Origin: Hamiltosporidium magnivora
Taxonomy: Eukaryota > Microsporidia > Dubosqiidae
Direction of reading: 5' to 3'
Length of the DNA: 19,051 bases
Assembly (NCBI GenBank): GCA_004325065.1
Contig: PITI01000150.1
Span: forward strand, 1-19,051
The notes under the pieces: model-generated
Databases searched by the model: none
Seen by the model: only the letters and a program-made list of their open reading frames with translations
Told to the model about the DNA's origin: nothing
Part shown: piece by piece, positions 2,256 through 16,063 of the stretch
How positions within the stretch are numbered: position 1 is the stretch's first letter
Layout: each line of letters starts with the position of its first letter
Program-made: the position numbers and the translations under genes

Positions 2256-2522
2256 AATTTATAGTTATATCACTATTTATTACAAGATATTTAGGATAAT
2301 GTAATAATTTATGTGTTATGCGATAGATATGTAAATATATACTGAAGAAAAATATTTATAAAATTGTTTATTTCAATTAAAGATTAAATTAAAAAAATAA
2401 ATTATTACAATTATAAAGTAAGTCCTATGAATATAAATTTATATACAAGTTATGTCTAATTTGATATAAATTTTATTTTTACAGTTTAACTTATATTTGT
2501 AGATTATCTTATTGATGTATAA

Positions 2523-2735
2523 ATACTTTACTTCTGTTATCAATTTATACTAAAATTTGAATAAAATACTTTACTTTGATATCAGTTTGTACTAAAATTT
2601 AAATAAAACATTTTACTTCTTAACACTGTTTATACTAAAATTTAAATAAACCACTTTACTTCTGTTATCAGTTTGTACCAAATTATAAATAAAATACTTT
2701 ACTTTGTTATAAGTTTAACTAACATATAAATACTC
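2523..2735. repeat. 43-bp minisatellite, five diverged copies
   Basis: Copies start at about 2523, 2566, 2608, 2651 and 2694, so the period is 42-43 bp. Each copy opens with a version of ATACTTTACTT, has a TTTATACTAAAATTT-like centre and closes with AAATAAA. Copies differ by several substitutions and small indels, so the array is old. It lies about 90 bp beyond the stop of the lectin-like gene at 2822-3352, in its downstream flank. Confidence 0.85.
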
Positions 2736-2821: not shown

Positions 2822-3352
2822 TTATCCTAATCTTCTAAACGGATTATACTTTCCATACTCATTCAATAGTCTTTCAACGGGTGTAGGTGGTGCAAAGAAG
2901 GGTTTACCGAAATGAGAATTACGACTATCAGAATCATAGTACTCTGCTGGTGTTTCTATATCAAACAACTGATTACGGTCATTACGACACGTTTCTCTCA
3001 TAAAAGCAAGTTCTAACTCATTATATTCCATACATAGACCATTACTCATGATTCGGTATGCACCAGAATAATCCAAGAAGAGTTGAAACTGCTGGTTGTT
3101 ATATCCGTGTAACGGATAATATATAAGTCTCTTGTTGTTACCTTCTATATCAAACACCTTGTCAAGTTCTACTGCTTCCAATGTCACTTCAAGAAGTGAG
3201 TTGCCTACACGGTCTATTTCATAGAAATCGGCATCCATTTTGTTTACAAGTTTAGGTACTGTTCGTCCAAGACTTCCTATATACTTGTCAGTGCCGTACA
3301 TCTTTATATAAGCTGGAAATGTGTATACAGTGCACAGTAATAAGAATAGCAT
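2822..3352 (-). CDS. secreted ricin-B-lectin-like (beta-trefoil) protein
   Basis: This is a 176-residue protein. Residues 1-13 (MLFLLLCTVYTFP) form a short hydrophobic signal peptide, so it is probably secreted or placed at the spore wall or host interface. Residues about 15-132 look like one or two trefoil lobes: FQLF at 89-92 and NQLFDI at 127-132 sit where ricin-B-type repeats have Gln-x-Trp, and the segment between them (YSGAYRI, NGLCMEY, ETCRNDRNQ) has the usual strand-turn pattern with Cys107 and Cys122 able to pair. The tail (133-176) is polar and proline-containing (FFAPPTP). Only the lectin fold is suggested; no catalytic chain is present. Ricin-B-lectin-like secreted proteins are a known expanded family in microsporidia. 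The usual tryptophans are Phe here, so sugar binding is uncertain. The start is the first ATG of the frame and gives the signal peptide. Confidence 0.7.
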   Translation of the reverse strand: MLFLLLCTVYTFPAYIKMYGTDKYIGSLGRTVPKLVNKMDADFYEIDRVGNSLLEVTLEAVELDKVFDIEGNNKRLIYYPLHGYNNQQFQLFLDYSGAYRIMSNGLCMEYNELELAFMRETCRNDRNQLFDIETPAEYYDSDSRNSHFGKPFFAPPTPVERLLNEYGKYNPFRRLG

Positions 3353-3580: not shown

Positions 3581-3930
3581 GGGGTGTTATTTAGGAGCAA
3601 TAGGTAGAAGATTTGTTAATGGTGTGTTATATAGGAGTTATAGTAGTATAAAGGGTGTTATTGATAATTACAGAGTAATAGTAGTATAAAGGGTGTTATC
3701 AATAAGTATATATTATAAGGTGTTTAAAGGGATGTTAGTATAAGTATATATTCTAAGGTGTTTAAAGGGTGTTAGTAATAAGTAAAGTATTATTAGTTAT
3801 AGGTCTTAGTAATAAGTAAAGTATTATTAATACATATAGGTGTTAGTTATAAGTAAAGTATTATTATTACATATAGGTGTTAGTTGTAGGTAAAATATAA
3901 ATAAATATTGGTTTTGGTCATTAGTAAAGT
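3581..3930 (+). repeat. left arm of inverted minisatellite (GGTGTTAG units on + strand)
   Basis: GGTGTTA-containing units recur at about 3582, 3622, 3653, 3691, 3768, 3839 and 3876, separated by A/T-rich spacers such as TAAGTAAAGTATTATTA. The spacing is irregular and the units are diverged. The same unit occurs in reverse complement at 4011-4553, with a mostly A/T-homopolymer centre of about 80 bp between them. The array lies in the upstream flank of the lectin-like gene. Confidence 0.85.
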
Positions 3931-4010
3931 ACTATTATAGTTAAAAAATTTAAAATTTTTTTTTTTTAAAAATATTTTACAAAAATAAAAGTATAATATA
4001 ACCTTTATTA

Positions 4011-4560
4011 TTAACACCCCTTTATCTCATGTATATATTTACTATAATATAACACTCTCTATATAACCTTTATAAAATAACCTTTATTATTAACACCTTC
4101 TGTATTACTTACTATACATAAGTATCATTACTATATATAACCCTATCTATATTACTCTTTATCCCTAACACCCCTTTACCTTACAATACCTTTACTCCTT
4201 ATAACTAACACCCCTTTAACTACAAAACTATTCCTCTTTATAACTAACACCCTCTATATTACTCTTTATAACTAACACCCCTTTAACTACAATACTATTA
4301 CTCTTTATAACTAACACCACTTTAACTACAATACTATTAATCTTTATAACTAACACCCTCTATATTACTCTTTATAACTAACACCCCTTTAACTACAATA
4401 CTATTACTCTTTATAACTAACACCACTTTAACTACAATACTATTAATCTTTATAACTAACACCCTCTATATTACTCTTTATAACTAACACCCTTCTCTAA
4501 CATATCCTCTAATACATCCCTAACACCCCTTTACCATACACTACCTCACCCTACTAACAC
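4011..4560 (-). repeat. right arm of inverted minisatellite, with a 106-bp higher-order repeat
   Basis: On the + strand the unit reads CTTTATAACTAACACC followed by CTTTAACTACAATACTATT or by CTCTATATT. Read on the minus strand it begins GGTGTTAGTTATAA, the same as the left arm. Subunits of 39, 39 and 28 bp form a 106-bp higher-order unit, and 4261-4366 and 4367-4472 appear identical base for base. Units nearer the centre (4011-4200) are more diverged. The array runs into the stop codon of the next gene: CTAACAC at 4554-4560 contains that gene's TAG in reverse complement. Confidence 0.9.
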
Positions 4561-5105
4561 ATTAAAGCCTCCATAACCTTAAAAAAGAACATCTGTATGT
4601 GTTCTTCAGTAAAACAAATACTATCACTCAAATACTCAGGCAAACTAACATTACAAGAACTTACAGGTTTATAAACATAAGAAGAAGTATCAGGAATAAG
4701 TAAAAATACAATATAACGAGTTACTCCTTTAACAGTTACAGTATGTGTACACTCATACTTACCTTCTACCTCTTTAATAGAAAGACCTATCAGTCTCTGA
4801 AAAATTAAAGAATCGTTTTTTAAATTTCTCAAAAATTTATTTTCTTCTCTGTACGACTCTAAAAGAGAAGATAAAGTATTTTCTGTAGAAATTATAGAAG
4901 AATCTAATTTTTTATTTTCTGTAGGTATAGTGTGATTGTCCTTATGTTTTAGAGACAGAGAAGTATCTCTACTCTCTCTACTCTCTGTCATCTCCTTACT
5001 CTCTCTACTCTCCTTACTCTCTCTACTCTGTTTGAGTGATAGAGGTGTCTTTATATTTCTTTTTTTTGGTGTTTTAAATGTTATGCGTGAACGGGGTGTT
5101 TTCAT
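4554..5105 (-). CDS. Csm1/Pcs1-like kinetochore (monopolin) subunit
   Basis: This 183-residue protein has the layout of fungal Csm1/Pcs1. Residues 1-25 are basic with three Lys-Thr-Pro motifs (one, TPKK, fits a CDK site). Residues 27-47 are a Ser-Arg-Glu/Ser-Lys-Glu repeat, residues about 72-98 look like a coiled coil, and 99-183 resemble the C-terminal globular domain: an IGLSI segment, then YECTHTV, a hydrophobic strand YIVFLLIP, YVYKPV, LPEYLSDSICF and a final helix with FFFKVMEAL. In yeast, Csm1 dimers cross-link kinetochore proteins and act at centromeres and rDNA; that role is inferred from the family. An RWD-fold relative such as Spc24/Spc25 is the alternative. The Ser-Arg-Glu repeat is encoded by a CTCTCTACTC-type DNA repeat at about 4963-5034 and may vary in length. 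The stop codon lies inside a word of the adjacent minisatellite. The start is the first ATG. Confidence 0.6.
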   Translation of the reverse strand: MKTPRSRITFKTPKKRNIKTPLSLKQSRESKESRESKEMTESRESRDTSLSLKHKDNHTIPTENKKLDSSIISTENTLSSLLESYREENKFLRNLKNDSLIFQRLIGLSIKEVEGKYECTHTVTVKGVTRYIVFLLIPDTSSYVYKPVSSCNVSLPEYLSDSICFTEEHIQMFFFKVMEALMC

Positions 5106-5495: not shown

Positions 5496-5579
5496 TGACA
5501 TCTGAGGGATTCGAACCCTCGCCCACTATCGTAGATTCGATTTTGAGTCGAACGCCTTAGACCACTCGGCCAAGATGTC
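5496..5579 (-). tRNA. tRNA-Leu (anticodon CAA), no intron
   Basis: The minus strand folds into a full class II tRNA. The acceptor stem GACATCT pairs with AGATGTC, followed by discriminator A at 5496. The D arm is of the TTGGCCGAGTGGTCTAAGGC type, the anticodon stem TTCGA pairs with TCGAA around the loop CTCAAAA (anticodon CAA at 5545-5543), there is a long variable arm, and the T arm is GAGGG-TTCGAAT-CCCTC. It reads the Leu codon UUG. CCA is not encoded. Many eukaryotic tRNA-Leu(CAA) genes have an intron next to the anticodon; this one has a 7-nt loop and none. The internal A box (TGGCCGAGTGG) and B box (GGTTCGAATCC) are intact. Confidence 0.95.
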
Positions 5580-5819: not shown

Positions 5820-6381
5820 ATGAATTTGATAATTATAGGGCCTCCTGGTAGTGGAAAAGGAACACAAAGTAAACTTTTATCTATAAATCTGAACTTGTAT
5901 CATATTTCTAGTGGAGATATATTACGAGACGAAATAAAAAAAGGTAATTTTTTTTTCTAATTTTTTAGACACAGAATTTGGTAGACAGATATCTGTAAAA
6001 ATACAAAAAGGTGAATTTATTAGTGACACTTTTATGGCAGAAATGGTGATGTGTAGGATTGGTGAGGTTGAAGGAGGTAAGGGTATTATTTTGGATGGAT
6101 TTCCTCGTAATTTGTATCAGATACCTTTTGTTACGATTGAAATTAGTGGAGTGATATTTTTAAATGTGAGTAAAGATATTTGTAAAAAGCGTGTGTTTCA
6201 AAGAAATGAGAATAGAAGTGATGATAGTGATATTGTGTTTGAGAATAGATGGGAATTGTATGAGAGAAGTACTTTGGAGGTTGTTGAGTATTATAGGAAT
6301 AAAGGGAAGGTTGTTGAGGTAGATGGGAGTAGAAGTAAGGAGGAGATTCGTGATTTCTTAGTAAAATATTTTAAGAAATAA
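5820..6381 (+). CDS. nucleoside monophosphate kinase (UMP/CMP or adenylate kinase), spliced
   Basis: This enzyme transfers phosphate from ATP to a nucleoside monophosphate in the cytosol. Exon 1 is 5820-5943 and exon 2 is 5969-6381; joined they encode 178 residues. The P-loop GPPGSGKGT is at 7-15, the NMP-binding helix SSGDILRDEI at 30-39, DTEFGRQI at 42-49, the DGFPRN motif at 84-89, a short-type lid with RNENRSDDS at 120-128, and Arg135 in the helix after it. DGFPRN with Asn, the RSDD lid and the ending (GKVVEVDGSRSKEEI) are closer to UMP-CMP kinases than to typical adenylate kinases, so UMP/CMP kinase is my first choice. At 178 residues it is slightly short for the family. Without splicing the frame hits TAA at 5958-5960. 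The ATG precedes NLIIIGPP, the usual N terminus. It is divergent to the tRNA. Confidence 0.85.
5944..5968 (+). other. 25-nt spliceosomal intron in the NMP kinase gene
   Basis: The intron begins GTAATT and ends TTCTAATTTTTTAG, so a CTAAT branch-point-like word lies almost against the 3' AG, as in other very short microsporidian introns. It splits codon 42 after its first base (G/AC, Asp). Removal restores the frame exactly, joining DILRDEIKK to DTEFGRQ, which is the expected kinase sequence at this point. Retention adds a stop codon and shifts the frame by one. Confidence 0.85.
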
Positions 6382-12300: not shown

Positions 12301-15235
12301 ACGTATATATAAATTAAACTGCGTTCAATCTCCAAACATAACTGCGAATCTTATACCTTCGAATTCTGGGTACTTAAGAGTATACATAAATAATAGATAA
12401 TTTGTTGTGTTGAGATCGGACAGCATTATGTATTTAAATTTTATATTAATCATTACGCTATTGGTTCACCGGATTCATAGTATACAACAGCAAGAAAAAT
12501 TGACAAAGTATCTCACAACACAATTTTCAATATAGAGGCATATTTTCATATTCCTTGGGATAATGTTTATAAATTTGTTATTATTTATTTATTTTTTCTC
12601 AAAAAAAATTTAAAGATTTATTAAAGAAGTTGGCTTTTCAATGCTTTTATAAGTCTGTAGATTTGATAATATATTTTCACATAAATGTATTTTTTTTAAT
12701 AATGCTACCAAATTCTTTAGTTATACAACACTTTAAGGTATATTCTGCCTCTTTACAACCTTTTTTCTCTTTAAATCGTTTTCAGATGCCAAAATCAAAT
12801 TATTCGTTTCCATTCGAACAAACTCAATTGCAACAATTTTTTTAAATGAACAAAGTTCTAAATGCACGTGATCTGTCTGAGTCTTAGCTTATATTGACAT
12901 GCTCTTTGCATTTTTTTATAATTATGCTGAAATAATTAACAAGTCTTTTTTTTAAAATTTACAATATCTTTAAAATATTTTGCAAAAAATAATTTCTATT
13001 GAAAATAAGAAAGGTTGTCCATTCGAGATATTTATATGCATCTCATTTGATGGAAAAATATAATGAAACCATCCGCATATATGTATCTAATACTCATCTT
13101 ATAAATCGTTTTTTTTCTAATTTCTCATTAAGAATTTAAAATAAAACTGTATAATCTTAGGCTATATTCTTTTATTCAATATGCTAAGATACATAAGATA
13201 TAATCTGACATAAAATAATTCGAATTCTTTTCATACTTCTAAATTTCATTTACGTATGCATATACTATAAAGTGCAGTTTTTAGAAAACTCTTAAATTGT
13301 TTATTTGAATTTTTATTCTCTCAAGATATTCTCTGATCTATTTTAATTGTATGGTGAAATGTTTTAAAGGCATTTGTCCCAGATGCGGAGGTCTTTAATC
13401 CAATAAAACTCTTTTCAGAAAGATATTTGATAAAATACAAAAAAATCTCTTTTCTATGTTTTCCATCCAGGTAGTTCGAGTATTTCCTTTCCCATTTAGC
13501 TAACTATATTTTCTTAAACAATGTTTAAAGTTTTTTTTTAACTACGTTAGATTTTGCAAAAAAAACCACCAAAAGATAAATAAACCTAGGATTTTATTTG
13601 AAGAGTTTTGAATATGTTTATATGTATACTGTTATCTGTAAGAGTTTTGCTTCAAATTTCTCACATTTCACATAATATTACTTATACGATTATTATATGA
13701 GAGTACATAGTTCCTTAATATCTACCCGCTAAAAGTTTGCTACTCTATATCGCTCTTCTTTGTTGCTTATCCAGCATACATATATAAAAGGTGTTGCTAA
13801 ACACTCATTTAATACCTTAGAATCTATTTTTGGCCAATTGTGTATTTTGCTGTATTTTGTAGCTCTCAAACATAATAGAGAAAGTACATTCTCTCTGGAA
13901 ATCAACTAGACAGATATAGAGCGTGAAGCAAATATAATTTCTCTTTAGAATGTTATGGTTGTATCTGATTTTTGTATCAAAAGTTAAGATGTCTTAAGGC
14001 CTCGAGCCAAGAAAGTGACATCGGTGTAAGAATACAGTATAAATCAGTGCAAACATCAGTTTTCAAAATTATTACGATGTATAAGTTACAACTAGGATTT
14101 ATAATTTAAAAAGGCAAAGGAAATAGAATAGAAGTACTTTTTCCTACCTTAAAAATTTATACCTCGTGTATCTTTTTTATAAACTTTATATCTTTCTGTT
14201 TTTTTTATTTTAAATTCGTTTATTACCCATATATAGTTTAAAACATATCATCAAGATTTAAATAACGTTTTTGCTCTGTAATTATATAAACATGATAGTA
14301 TCATATGATATTTTTTGGTGAAATAATCCCATTTTCGGAATAAATTGCAAAAGAGAAATCATAAGAGTTAATTTATGTTAAAATATTAACATTTTCGCTA
14401 TATAATATAATTTTTACAGGAAATTTTCTGAAATTTACCCAAATAATTCGTAGAAGGCATATTTTTGGAGAAAATCGTCTTTGTTTATATATGTGAAAGA
14501 GAAAAGGGATTTATGTTTGGTTGCACATATATGTTTATATTAAACCGCCATTATGGCAAGTATAAATATAATTTCTAAAATAGCAAAAAAAAGAATTGAA
14601 ATAACTCTTAGCATGCAAAATATACATTTGAATGTAGGCAATTAAATCATATTTGAATATTGGTAAATTAATACGATTTAATGACTGATATAATTTATTT
14701 ATAGTTTAAACATAAAAGATTCGCAATAATTAGGAAGAAAAAATAGCAAAATATTTAGAGAATATATTTAAATTTCATACTTAGTTTTTTTTTCTCGGGT
14801 TTTAAGGCATTTAAACCCTTATACCCATCAAAAAGAAAATTATTTTTTGGAGGCCAATACTACTCTAAGTATAGCATACTTTATTGGCTTTTAATGCCTA
14901 TTTAAATTCTCTGTTTATTATGTTAATGCGGTTTTGCCATCGAATTAACTTAAATTTCGGTTAAATTTTACATAATAACAAAATTTCACTGCTTTGATTA
15001 TTAATCAGCTTAAAATAAATTTAATCCACGCAGATTTTCCCAGTATAGATATTAACTTTCTCAATAATTTTTGATTTAAAATTTAAAGATAAAATCTATG
15101 GTAAATCACACAGATAGGTTTCGCGTTCTGATAAATTTAAAAAAAGGGAAGATTACCTATCGACGTAAATTAAATATTACTTTATTTAAAAGTATCACAT
15201 CTTTTTAAAAAAAGCAAGTGTTATATTTGTTTACA
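9361..15235. other. 5.9-kb gene desert
   Basis: No intact gene is supported on either strand. The sequence is A/T-rich with scattered TCGAA and ATTCGAA words. The longest open pieces, such as 12630-12845 on plus (a TTG-start hydrophobic frame) and about 13731-13905 and 13311-13500 on minus, are of a length expected by chance. I could not identify RNA genes, terminal inverted repeats or transposase-like motifs. Confidence 0.5.
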
Positions 15236-15720
15236 TACCATTACGAGATTCTAGGTGTAACATAAATAACTGCTACTCCAACACGCCATCAACACCCCCT
15301 GCGATACCTAAATTCCACTGCATTTTATCTAACAGCTGTGTAGAACCTAATCACTAGGCGAGGCAGTTCTGCGGGGTTTGTTAGTGTCCGTTGCATGGAG
15401 TGTGATCGAAGTCCAAGACCCCCCTGGGCTCCCCCAAGACTAGGCAGCATTTCCACTACTCTACACTTTCTGAACCCAACAAATTTCTAGCTAAAATATA
15501 TTTCAGAGACTTACATGGGGTTCACCTAGACAGTGCAATGTCATACCGAGAGGTATAACCTCCTACTTAGCTTTCCCGGCTTTAAATCTTTTTATTTTCT
15601 ATATCCCCCAGGCACTCAATCTTTTAAGCCAGTGTACAAAGCTAGATTTTCATGCTTTTGCACGGCAATTGCCTACATTTTTGGCTGCGACCTTTGATCC
15701 AGTTACATAGAAAACTACAA
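15236..15720. other. G+C-rich island of unknown nature
   Basis: This roughly 480-bp island stands out clearly from its flanks, with runs such as CAACACCCCCTGCG, GACCCCCCTGGGCTCCCCC and ATATCCCCCAGGC. The hexamer TTCTAG lies at 15249-15254 and again at 15485-15490, enclosing 230 bp that start GTGTAACATA and end CCCAACAAAT, which would be compatible with a solo LTR or other insertion and a 6-bp target duplication. A small hairpin, GAGGT-ATA-ACCTC, is at 15550-15562. No long frame is present: the best is a 48-codon plus-strand stretch ending at 15488-15490. I did not find rRNA, RNase P, SRP or snRNA signature sequences. A transposon fragment, structural RNA or foreign insert are all possible. 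Confidence 0.45.
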
Positions 15721-16063
15721 ATAAATTTATAGAAAAAGTTTCATCACTTTGTAGACCTCTATTCATAATAAAAACCTCCATGAATAACTTAAGATGTCTC
15801 TCTAAGAATATTATTCAATTAAAAAATAATAATTCCTATTATTTATTCAAATTTATAGATAACAGATCTATGTTGCCCAAACATACTTCTATTATATAAT
15901 ATTTAGTATATCAATTGTTTACTATAGAGAATTAGATGAAAGGAAAATTGTTTTTCAACCAAACCTAAAAATATATTCTTTGTATGAGCAGCAAAGGTAT
16001 ATGTTTTTTAATTTAAAAAAAATTTAAAAGTTCATTTGCACTTAAAAAATGGATTTCTTTGTG

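What the first reader, a model, noticed from the sequence alone, without database searches (positions are those of the whole stretch)
3581..4560. Head-to-head inverted minisatellite between two genes
Units containing GGTGTTAG run on the plus strand from 3581 to about 3930, and the same unit runs on the minus strand from 4011 to 4553, around an A/T-homopolymer centre of about 80 bp. G-rich sequence therefore switches strand exactly at the centre. This is not a simple tandem array; it could arise from an inversion or fold-back event, and could act as a replication origin, a fragile site, a matrix or chromatin boundary, or a centromere-like element. Its place next to a possible kinetochore gene is a curiosity rather than evidence.
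Basis: seen in the sequence. Interest (0 to 1): 0.75.

Follow-up and report, generated by a model that had tools for sequence, protein, structure and literature searches.

The report
Inverted minisatellites pointing away from genes
The head-to-head repeat is real, but it is one of dozens of similar repeat arrays in the genome of a water-flea parasite, and in the sample read here arrays close to a gene nearly always point their G-rich strand away from it, for reasons not yet known.

Summary
Observation confirmed: GGTGTTA units on + in 3582-3882, TAACACC units in 4012-4528, around a 129-bp A/T centre. The window is from the microsporidian Hamiltosporidium (probably H. tvaerminnensis). The locus is not unique: tandem TAACACC pairs occur 494 times in the held genome against 2 for the reversed control, on at least 60 of 644 contigs. 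The core is shared, the spacers are locus-specific. Arrays lie between genes and, in frame, inside genes (myosin, gamma-tubulin complex, Prp8-like, hydrolase). Opposite arms of a locus are in general no more alike than arms of different loci, so local inversion is not the general origin; for the window itself the evidence is mixed. A polarity appears instead: within 120 bp of an ORF end the G-rich strand reads away from the ORF in 35 of 37 runs, at both 5' and 3' ends; beyond 120 bp there is no rule (9:6). The window thus looks like two arrays, one per facing gene end. I favour polar, break-centred growth of minisatellites in unconstrained DNA; a decayed fold-back/MITE-like element and oriented binding sites are live rivals. 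The polarity is the surprising part; the sample was not random, the limit was chosen afterwards, and the mechanism is inferred.

The parts
3582..3882 (-). Arm 1: 8 cores (6 exact) reading TAACACC on - (GGTGTTA on +), spacings 31-71 bp
3883..4011 (.). Centre, 129 bp, 87% A+T, with A and T homopolymers
4012..4528 (+). Arm 2: 14 cores (13 exact) reading TAACACC on +; includes a 106-bp higher-order unit, 3.3 copies at 4146-4492
2822..3352 (-). ORF of 176 aa with a weak Ricin_B_lectin match (21.1 bits, below the cut-off of 29); its 5' end is 229 bp from arm 1, whose G-rich strand reads away from it
4554..5105 (-). DUF5094 gene (PF17015), 183 aa; its stop lies 25 bp from arm 2, whose G-rich strand reads away from it

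Best explanation
Shown in the loci read: the element is one member of a dispersed minisatellite family with a shared core (TAACACCC, weakly TTATNNTAACACCCTTTTA) and locus-specific spacers. Arrays lie between constrained blocks, in intergenic DNA or in variable parts of genes, where spacings keep the reading frame. Runs close to a block have the G-rich strand (GGTGTTA, 5' to 3') leading away from it on either side, so the space between two blocks reads G then C, as in this window. Inferred: cores near block ends serve as seeds and each arm grows by its own local tandem duplication (slippage or unequal exchange). The G-to-C polarity comes from a process centred inside the unconstrained interval, most simply repair of breaks there: the two 3' ends (or the two exposed single strands) are equivalent, and both come to carry the G-rich, C-poor sequence. 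No function is required. I hold the shown part at about 0.85 and the inferred mechanism at about 0.35; the number below is for the whole.
For: Dispersal: 494 tandem pairs against 2 for the reversed pattern. Shared core flank, unshared spacers: 46 loci, 536 cores (the first 7 bases were fixed by selection, the 8th is C in 87%). Arms independent in general. Polarity: 44 of 52 intergenic runs outward, 35 of 37 within 120 bp (25 of 27 if runs overlapping the ORF are left out), 28 of 32 with one run per contig, 24 of 28 where the interval holds one orientation only; 8 of 9 scored intragenic runs relative to Pfam domain edges. Not tied to transcription sense: 17 G and 16 C runs in coding sense. Frame: 160 of 181 intragenic spacings are multiples of 3, against 155 of 423 intergenic. 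G-to-C junctions are short (21, median 77 bp), C-to-G junctions long (25, median 365 bp). Some array-free ORF ends are G-skewed outward too (21 of 29 above 0.2).
Against: The break-centred step is not observed anywhere. It does not explain why one core is shared by all loci. Beyond 120 bp there is no polarity (9:6), and the limit was chosen after seeing the data. The 8 loci fetched later gave only 4 scorable runs, 2 for and 2 against. Exact close opposite-strand pairs are nearly even, 15 G-to-C and 12 C-to-G. Four ends of two kinase genes picked for another reason show little skew (+0.24, -0.15, +0.27, -0.05). The intragenic exception is a 17-core run next to a PI3/4-kinase domain.
Confidence: 0.4

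Rival explanations
1. Decayed copies of a mobile element with inverted ends (fold-back or MITE-like): ends of the type TAAAAGGGTGTTA ... TAACACCCTTTTA, each end later expanded into a tandem array. Inverted ends give the G-to-C polarity automatically.
For: A motif with fixed orientation shared by all loci, with weak consensus ending soon after CCCTTTTA; recurrent tight G-to-C junctions of 16-18 bp (7 of 21); occurrence inside genes and between genes. Other microsporidia carry MITEs (PMC4405373, passages).
Against: Opposite arms of a locus are no more alike than arms of different loci; many loci have one arm (20 of 46 lack runs on both strands); no target duplication, empty site or transposase was looked for successfully.
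Confidence: 0.25
2. Clusters of binding sites for a DNA-binding boundary factor (of the Rap1/Tbf1/Reb1 general kind, recalled) that acts with orientation at gene ends, as insulator, terminator or polar fork barrier.
For: Conserved core with free spacers; nearness to gene ends and fixed orientation at both 5' (11:1) and 3' (24:1) ends within 120 bp. Microsporidian genes have CCC-like signals just upstream of the start codon (PMC2803860, passages), which fits the C sense upstream but not the G sense downstream.
Against: 36 of 98 runs lie inside ORFs, in both coding senses, where a boundary or terminator would be harmful. No protein was identified.
Confidence: 0.17
3. Transcription-coupled strand asymmetry: divergent transcription at 5' ends and read-through at 3' ends both leave the gene with a G-rich non-template strand (R-loop prone), and repeats expand there.
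For: Outward G skew at 5' and 3' ends alike, with and without arrays. Transcription of both strands and overrun are reported for E. cuniculi (PMC2803860, passages).
Against: Intragenic runs show no preference for coding sense, 17 G and 16 C; skew is weak at the four kinase ends.
Confidence: 0.08
4. One reading: a local inversion or fold-back copied one arm into the other at this locus.
For: Arm 2 is arm 1's best match among 62 arms (46, next 42). Another locus, L010, fits whole-unit inversion (0.67 against 0.56 for flipping the core in place).
Against: No excess of similarity between opposite arms over all loci; three other arms match arm 2 better; at the window neither inversion (0.50) nor in-place flipping (0.49) is favoured.
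Confidence: 0.1

Closest known systems
Dispersed minisatellites / VNTRs with a shared core (human core families recalled)
   Same: Tandem units of about 27-48 bp, shared short core, locus-specific spacers, G-rich/C-rich strand asymmetry, length differences between strains
   Different: Orientation follows the nearest constrained block; frequent two-armed arrays; many in-frame coding members
Fold-back transposons (Drosophila FB type, recalled)
   Same: Inverted arms made of short tandem units around a short centre
   Different: Arms are not near-identical inverted repeats; no target duplication or element genes shown
REP/BIME elements of bacteria (PMC2817692, abstract start seen)
   Same: Short dispersed repeats, regularly spaced, in two orientations
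   Different: Here orientation comes in long runs, not regular alternation, and the host is a eukaryote
Large in-frame amino-acid insertions of Octosporea bayeri (PMC2784321, section 10 read in full)
   Same: Same lineage; in-frame inserts in conserved proteins, retained in mRNA by RT-PCR
   Different: Reported as 14 proteins without a link to a DNA repeat family; whether they are this family was not tested
Interstitial telomeric repeats
   Same: G-rich strands converge head to head, as at a telomere fusion
   Different: The H. tvaerminnensis telomere is (TTAGGG)n (PMC10542269, passages); the unit here is longer and its core is GGTGTTA

Membership tests
Minisatellite | Tandem units of about 10-100 bp | tested here: met
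   Periods 28-106 bp in the window; spacings mostly 27-48 bp elsewhere
Minisatellite | Copy number varies between strains | tested here: inconclusive
   One protein pair differs in the array (473 against 491 aa); at the window locus the public gene models read different arrays. No DNA of other strains was compared
Fold-back transposon | Long, closely matching inverted arms | tested here: not met
   Best inverted match 63 nt at 71%; opposite arms no more alike than unrelated arms
Fold-back transposon | Target-site duplication or empty site | not tested
   No DNA of other strains at hand
Telomeric repeat | Units equal the species' telomere repeat | tested here: not met
   Published telomere is (TTAGGG)n; the core here is GGTGTTA in units of 27-48 bp
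Regional centromere | One site per chromosome | tested here: not met
   At least 60 of 644 contigs carry the family (lists), against 13-17 estimated chromosomes (PMC10542269, passages)
Replication origin, fragile site or chromatin boundary | Origin firing, breakage or boundary activity | not testable with these tools
   Needs experiments
REP/BIME-like element | Units alternate in orientation | tested here: not met
   494 same-strand pairs (gap 12-42) against 27 opposite-strand pairs (gap 10-40)

The most novel reading that the evidence does not exclude
In Hamiltosporidium the unconstrained DNA between conserved blocks, intergenic and intragenic alike, is shaped by a strand-polar process that leaves a G-rich strand running 5' to 3' away from each block and amplifies one 8-base core into locus-specific minisatellites. 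Two-armed head-to-head arrays such as this one are its visible signature, and the same process is a source of the lineage's in-frame protein inserts.
Probability: 0.35. Interest if true: 0.8.

Novelty: new variant of a known kind. Interest (0 to 1): 0.5.

Why it matters
A dispersed minisatellite family whose orientation is set by the nearest constrained block, at both ends of genes and inside them, would be a sequence-only readout of a directional repair, recombination or boundary process in microsporidia. It would also suggest where in-frame protein inserts of this lineage come from. Both can be tested at once on the published near-chromosome assembly.

Tried and rejected
Considered and set aside: (1) misassembly as the cause: other contigs show the same anatomy and another public contig has the same gene-array-gene order (P0003). 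(2) Interstitial telomere: the unit differs from (TTAGGG)n. (3) Local inversion as the general cause. (4) Transcription sense as the cause: intragenic runs are 17 G and 16 C in coding sense. (5) In-place flipping of the core (AACAGGGTGTT and AACACCCTGTT are reverse complements): suggested at L015 (0.60 against 0.49 for inversion), L083 (0.57 against 0.48), L091 (0.51 against 0.40) and L079 (0.55 against 0.50), but favoured in only 3 of 6 mainly coding and 2 of 7 non-coding loci; 18 loci were printed and 5 fall in neither class. That script then crashed, before its last count. (6) Alanyl-tRNA synthetase (L094): the alignment shows GV-rich codons but no clear array insert, so it is not counted as an example of an insert, though its two runs count among the intragenic spacings. 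(7) The minisatellite at 2521-2732 as a core-less relative of arm 1: score 15.5 against a shuffled mean of 12.4, maximum 19.5. (8) Exact close opposite-strand pairs as proof of polarity: 15 against 12, too even.

Limits: the first 46 loci are the window and 45 pieces that I chose from the hit lists, not at random; 8 more came later. Genes are ORFs of at least 100 aa without transcript evidence; other cut-offs give 45:6 (60 aa), 44:6 (80) and 39:10 (130) in the first set. In the final count 36 runs inside ORFs and 10 without an ORF in the piece were left out, leaving 52. In one search, 9 of 21 intragenic runs could be scored. Some contigs appear to be duplicate copies of each other (C119/C122, C76/C572), so 60 contigs is not 60 independent loci; on the other hand three of the five lists it is counted from were cut short. 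Of three kinase genes fetched as outside controls I used two (four ends); I did not place the ends of the third (C39). The held genome (10.74 Mb) is about half of the published assembly (21.64 Mb).

Full report
WHAT IS THERE. Six exact TAACACC lie on the - strand in 3583-3882 and thirteen on the + strand in 4012-4527; shuffles give 1.46 for the whole window on average. Allowing one mismatch to TAACACCC, arm 1 has 8 cores and arm 2 has 14, with a 129-bp centre of 87% A+T. The + strand has no net G in 4201-4500 (GC skew -1.00). Arm 2 contains a 106-bp higher-order unit repeated 3.3 times at 95%, which speaks for recent local tandem duplication.

WHERE IT COMES FROM. The neighbour gene (4554-5105, -) is DUF5094 (PF17015, E 6.6e-43). 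Its closest relatives are H. tvaerminnensis proteins (97% for P0001), so the window is from Hamiltosporidium, a microsporidian parasite of Daphnia. The held genome has 10.74 Mb in 644 contigs. P0002 and P0003 carry translated array at their ends. Reading the window's - strand by eye, a GT...AG 'intron' beginning within the ATG of HIQM and ending in GTAAAG gives the residues MGVRDVLEDMLEK of P0002. These look like gene-model artefacts that splice into arm 2 and drop the FFFK end that is conserved in P0004 and P0005. P0003 then runs on into the lectin-like ORF (SLGRTVPKLV...): the same gene - array - gene order in another public contig.

A GENOME-WIDE FAMILY. TAACACC-N12-42-TAACACC occurs 494 times against 2 for the reversed pattern. 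From the lists printed, at least 60 of 644 contigs carry a tandem pair (three of the five lists were cut; a few contigs look like duplicates). I read 46 loci, the window plus 45 that I chose from the lists. With equal weight per locus, the base after the selected 7-mer is C in 87%, TTTTA after it and TTAT before it are weakly shared, and the rest of the unit is not (536 cores). 26 of 46 loci have runs on both strands, with 21 G-to-C and 25 C-to-G junctions. G-to-C junctions are short (median 77 bp, 7 of 21 at 16-18 bp, 129 bp in the window) and C-to-G junctions long (median 365 bp).

INSIDE GENES TOO. Intragenic runs have spacings that are multiples of three in 160 of 181 cases, against 155 of 423 between genes. 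Host ORFs include an alpha/beta hydrolase, an XMAP215/CLASP TOG protein, a ubiquitin hydrolase, a PI3/4-kinase, a Prp8 N-terminal domain, an LRR protein and a myosin head and a gamma-tubulin complex protein. In coding sense the G form reads, for example, QGVNNSTNKQ (L079) and the C form HPVNNS (L015). In the hydrolase the array lies between two conserved blocks. It is absent from 6 of the 7 more distant homologues that I aligned; the seventh, P0007, has an unrelated insert there. Another H. tvaerminnensis record has a different array (473 against 491 aa in all). An H. magnivora protein carries similar units (P0089). Corradi et al. 2009 reported in-frame inserts of 15-57 residues in 14 conserved proteins of O. 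bayeri, retained in mRNA (PMC2784321; passages, section 10 in full). Whether those are this family was not tested.

ARMS ARE NOT COPIES OF EACH OTHER IN GENERAL. Spacer similarity of opposite runs at one locus is 0.503 (108 ordered comparisons), and of runs at different loci 0.509 (9,340). For the window the signal is mixed: arm 2 is arm 1's best match of 62 arms (46 against 42), yet three other arms match arm 2 better. One other locus, L010, does look like a true inverted duplication (0.67 against 0.56).

POLARITY. For each intergenic run of at least 3 cores I asked whether the G-rich strand reads away from the nearest ORF end. In the first set it was 42 away and 6 toward. Eight loci fetched afterwards gave 2 and 2, the two agreeing runs lying 5 and 62 bp from an ORF and the two disagreeing ones 126 and 293 bp away. 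All together: 44:8; within 120 bp 35:2 (5' ends 11:1, 3' ends 24:1; 25:2 without runs overlapping the ORF); beyond 120 bp 9:6; one run per contig 28:4; intervals with one orientation only 24:4. The 120-bp limit was chosen after seeing the data. Relative to Pfam domain edges inside genes the count is 8:1 of 21 runs. Coding sense of intragenic runs is even, 17:16, so the rule follows block edges, not transcription sense. ORF ends without a detected array in the loci read also tend to G skew outward (21 of 29 above 0.2, one below -0.2), but four ends of two kinase genes picked for another reason show little (+0.24, -0.15, +0.27, -0.05). The skew may be confined to part of the genome.

HOW IT MAY WORK. 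A process centred inside an unconstrained interval and equivalent on its two sides would give G on the left and C on the right of its centre, whatever the gene direction. Repair of breaks does this, since both 3' ends, or both exposed strands, are treated alike. Local tandem duplication then enlarges each arm by itself, under frame constraint in genes. This accounts for independent arms, frame, strain differences and polarity, but not for the one shared core. A mobile element with inverted ends accounts for core and polarity, but not for dissimilar arms. A binding-factor model accounts for core and gene ends, but not for in-frame arrays in both senses. I put the break-centred reading first with modest confidence; none of its steps was observed.

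IN PRINT. Searches for Hamiltosporidium with tandem repeat, O. bayeri, minisatellite and related words (top 20 of 1,343 listed), microsporidian CCC-like signals, GC skew with intergenic and microsporidia, Hamiltosporidium with nonadaptive or repeats (6 of 230 listed), dispersed minisatellites and inverted orientation (8 of 33 listed) and GC skew with R-loop and related words (8 of 79 listed) showed no title or abstract start that describes this family or its polarity. Of opened papers I saw passages only (PMC10542269, PMC12449221, PMC2803860, PMC4405373) and, for PMC2784321, passages and one section. The library lacks most subscription journals, so absence from print is not established.

VERDICT. 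Observation confirmed, interpretation partly supported. The locus is a typical member of a dispersed family. What deserves attention is the outward polarity near block edges, which needs a genome-wide count on annotated genes before it is relied on.

Noticed in passing
window 2521-2732: A different minisatellite, 43-bp unit x 5, on the 3' side of the lectin-like ORF; it shares ATACTTTACTT with arm 1's spacer on the other strand, but the similarity is within chance.
   Followed up: partly
window about 15150-15750 and L085 about 860-1500: A stretch richer in G+C (about 0.4) than its surroundings whose sequence resembles, by eye, one in L085: probably an undescribed dispersed repeat or a non-coding element; no Rfam match at gathering threshold in the window.
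   Followed up: no
window 5938-6381 (+): Adenylate-kinase-like open frame (E 2.3e-15) that starts at profile position 38, so the N-terminal part with the nucleotide-binding loop is not in this frame.
   Followed up: no
window 5496-5579 (-): tRNA-Leu (anticodon CAA), 84 nt.
   Followed up: no
P0002 and P0003, public H. tvaerminnensis proteins: Gene models that appear to use a false GT...AG intron to read into arm 2, one of them fusing the DUF5094 gene to the neighbouring lectin-like ORF.
   Followed up: partly
G000 contigs C119/C122, C76/C572, C315/C480, C3/C398: Pairs of contigs with identical hits, probably duplicate haplotypes in the held assembly.
   Followed up: no
L106 about 225-450: A G+C-rich stretch downstream of a kinase gene on C39 that looks unlike its surroundings, possibly another dispersed repeat.
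   Followed up: no
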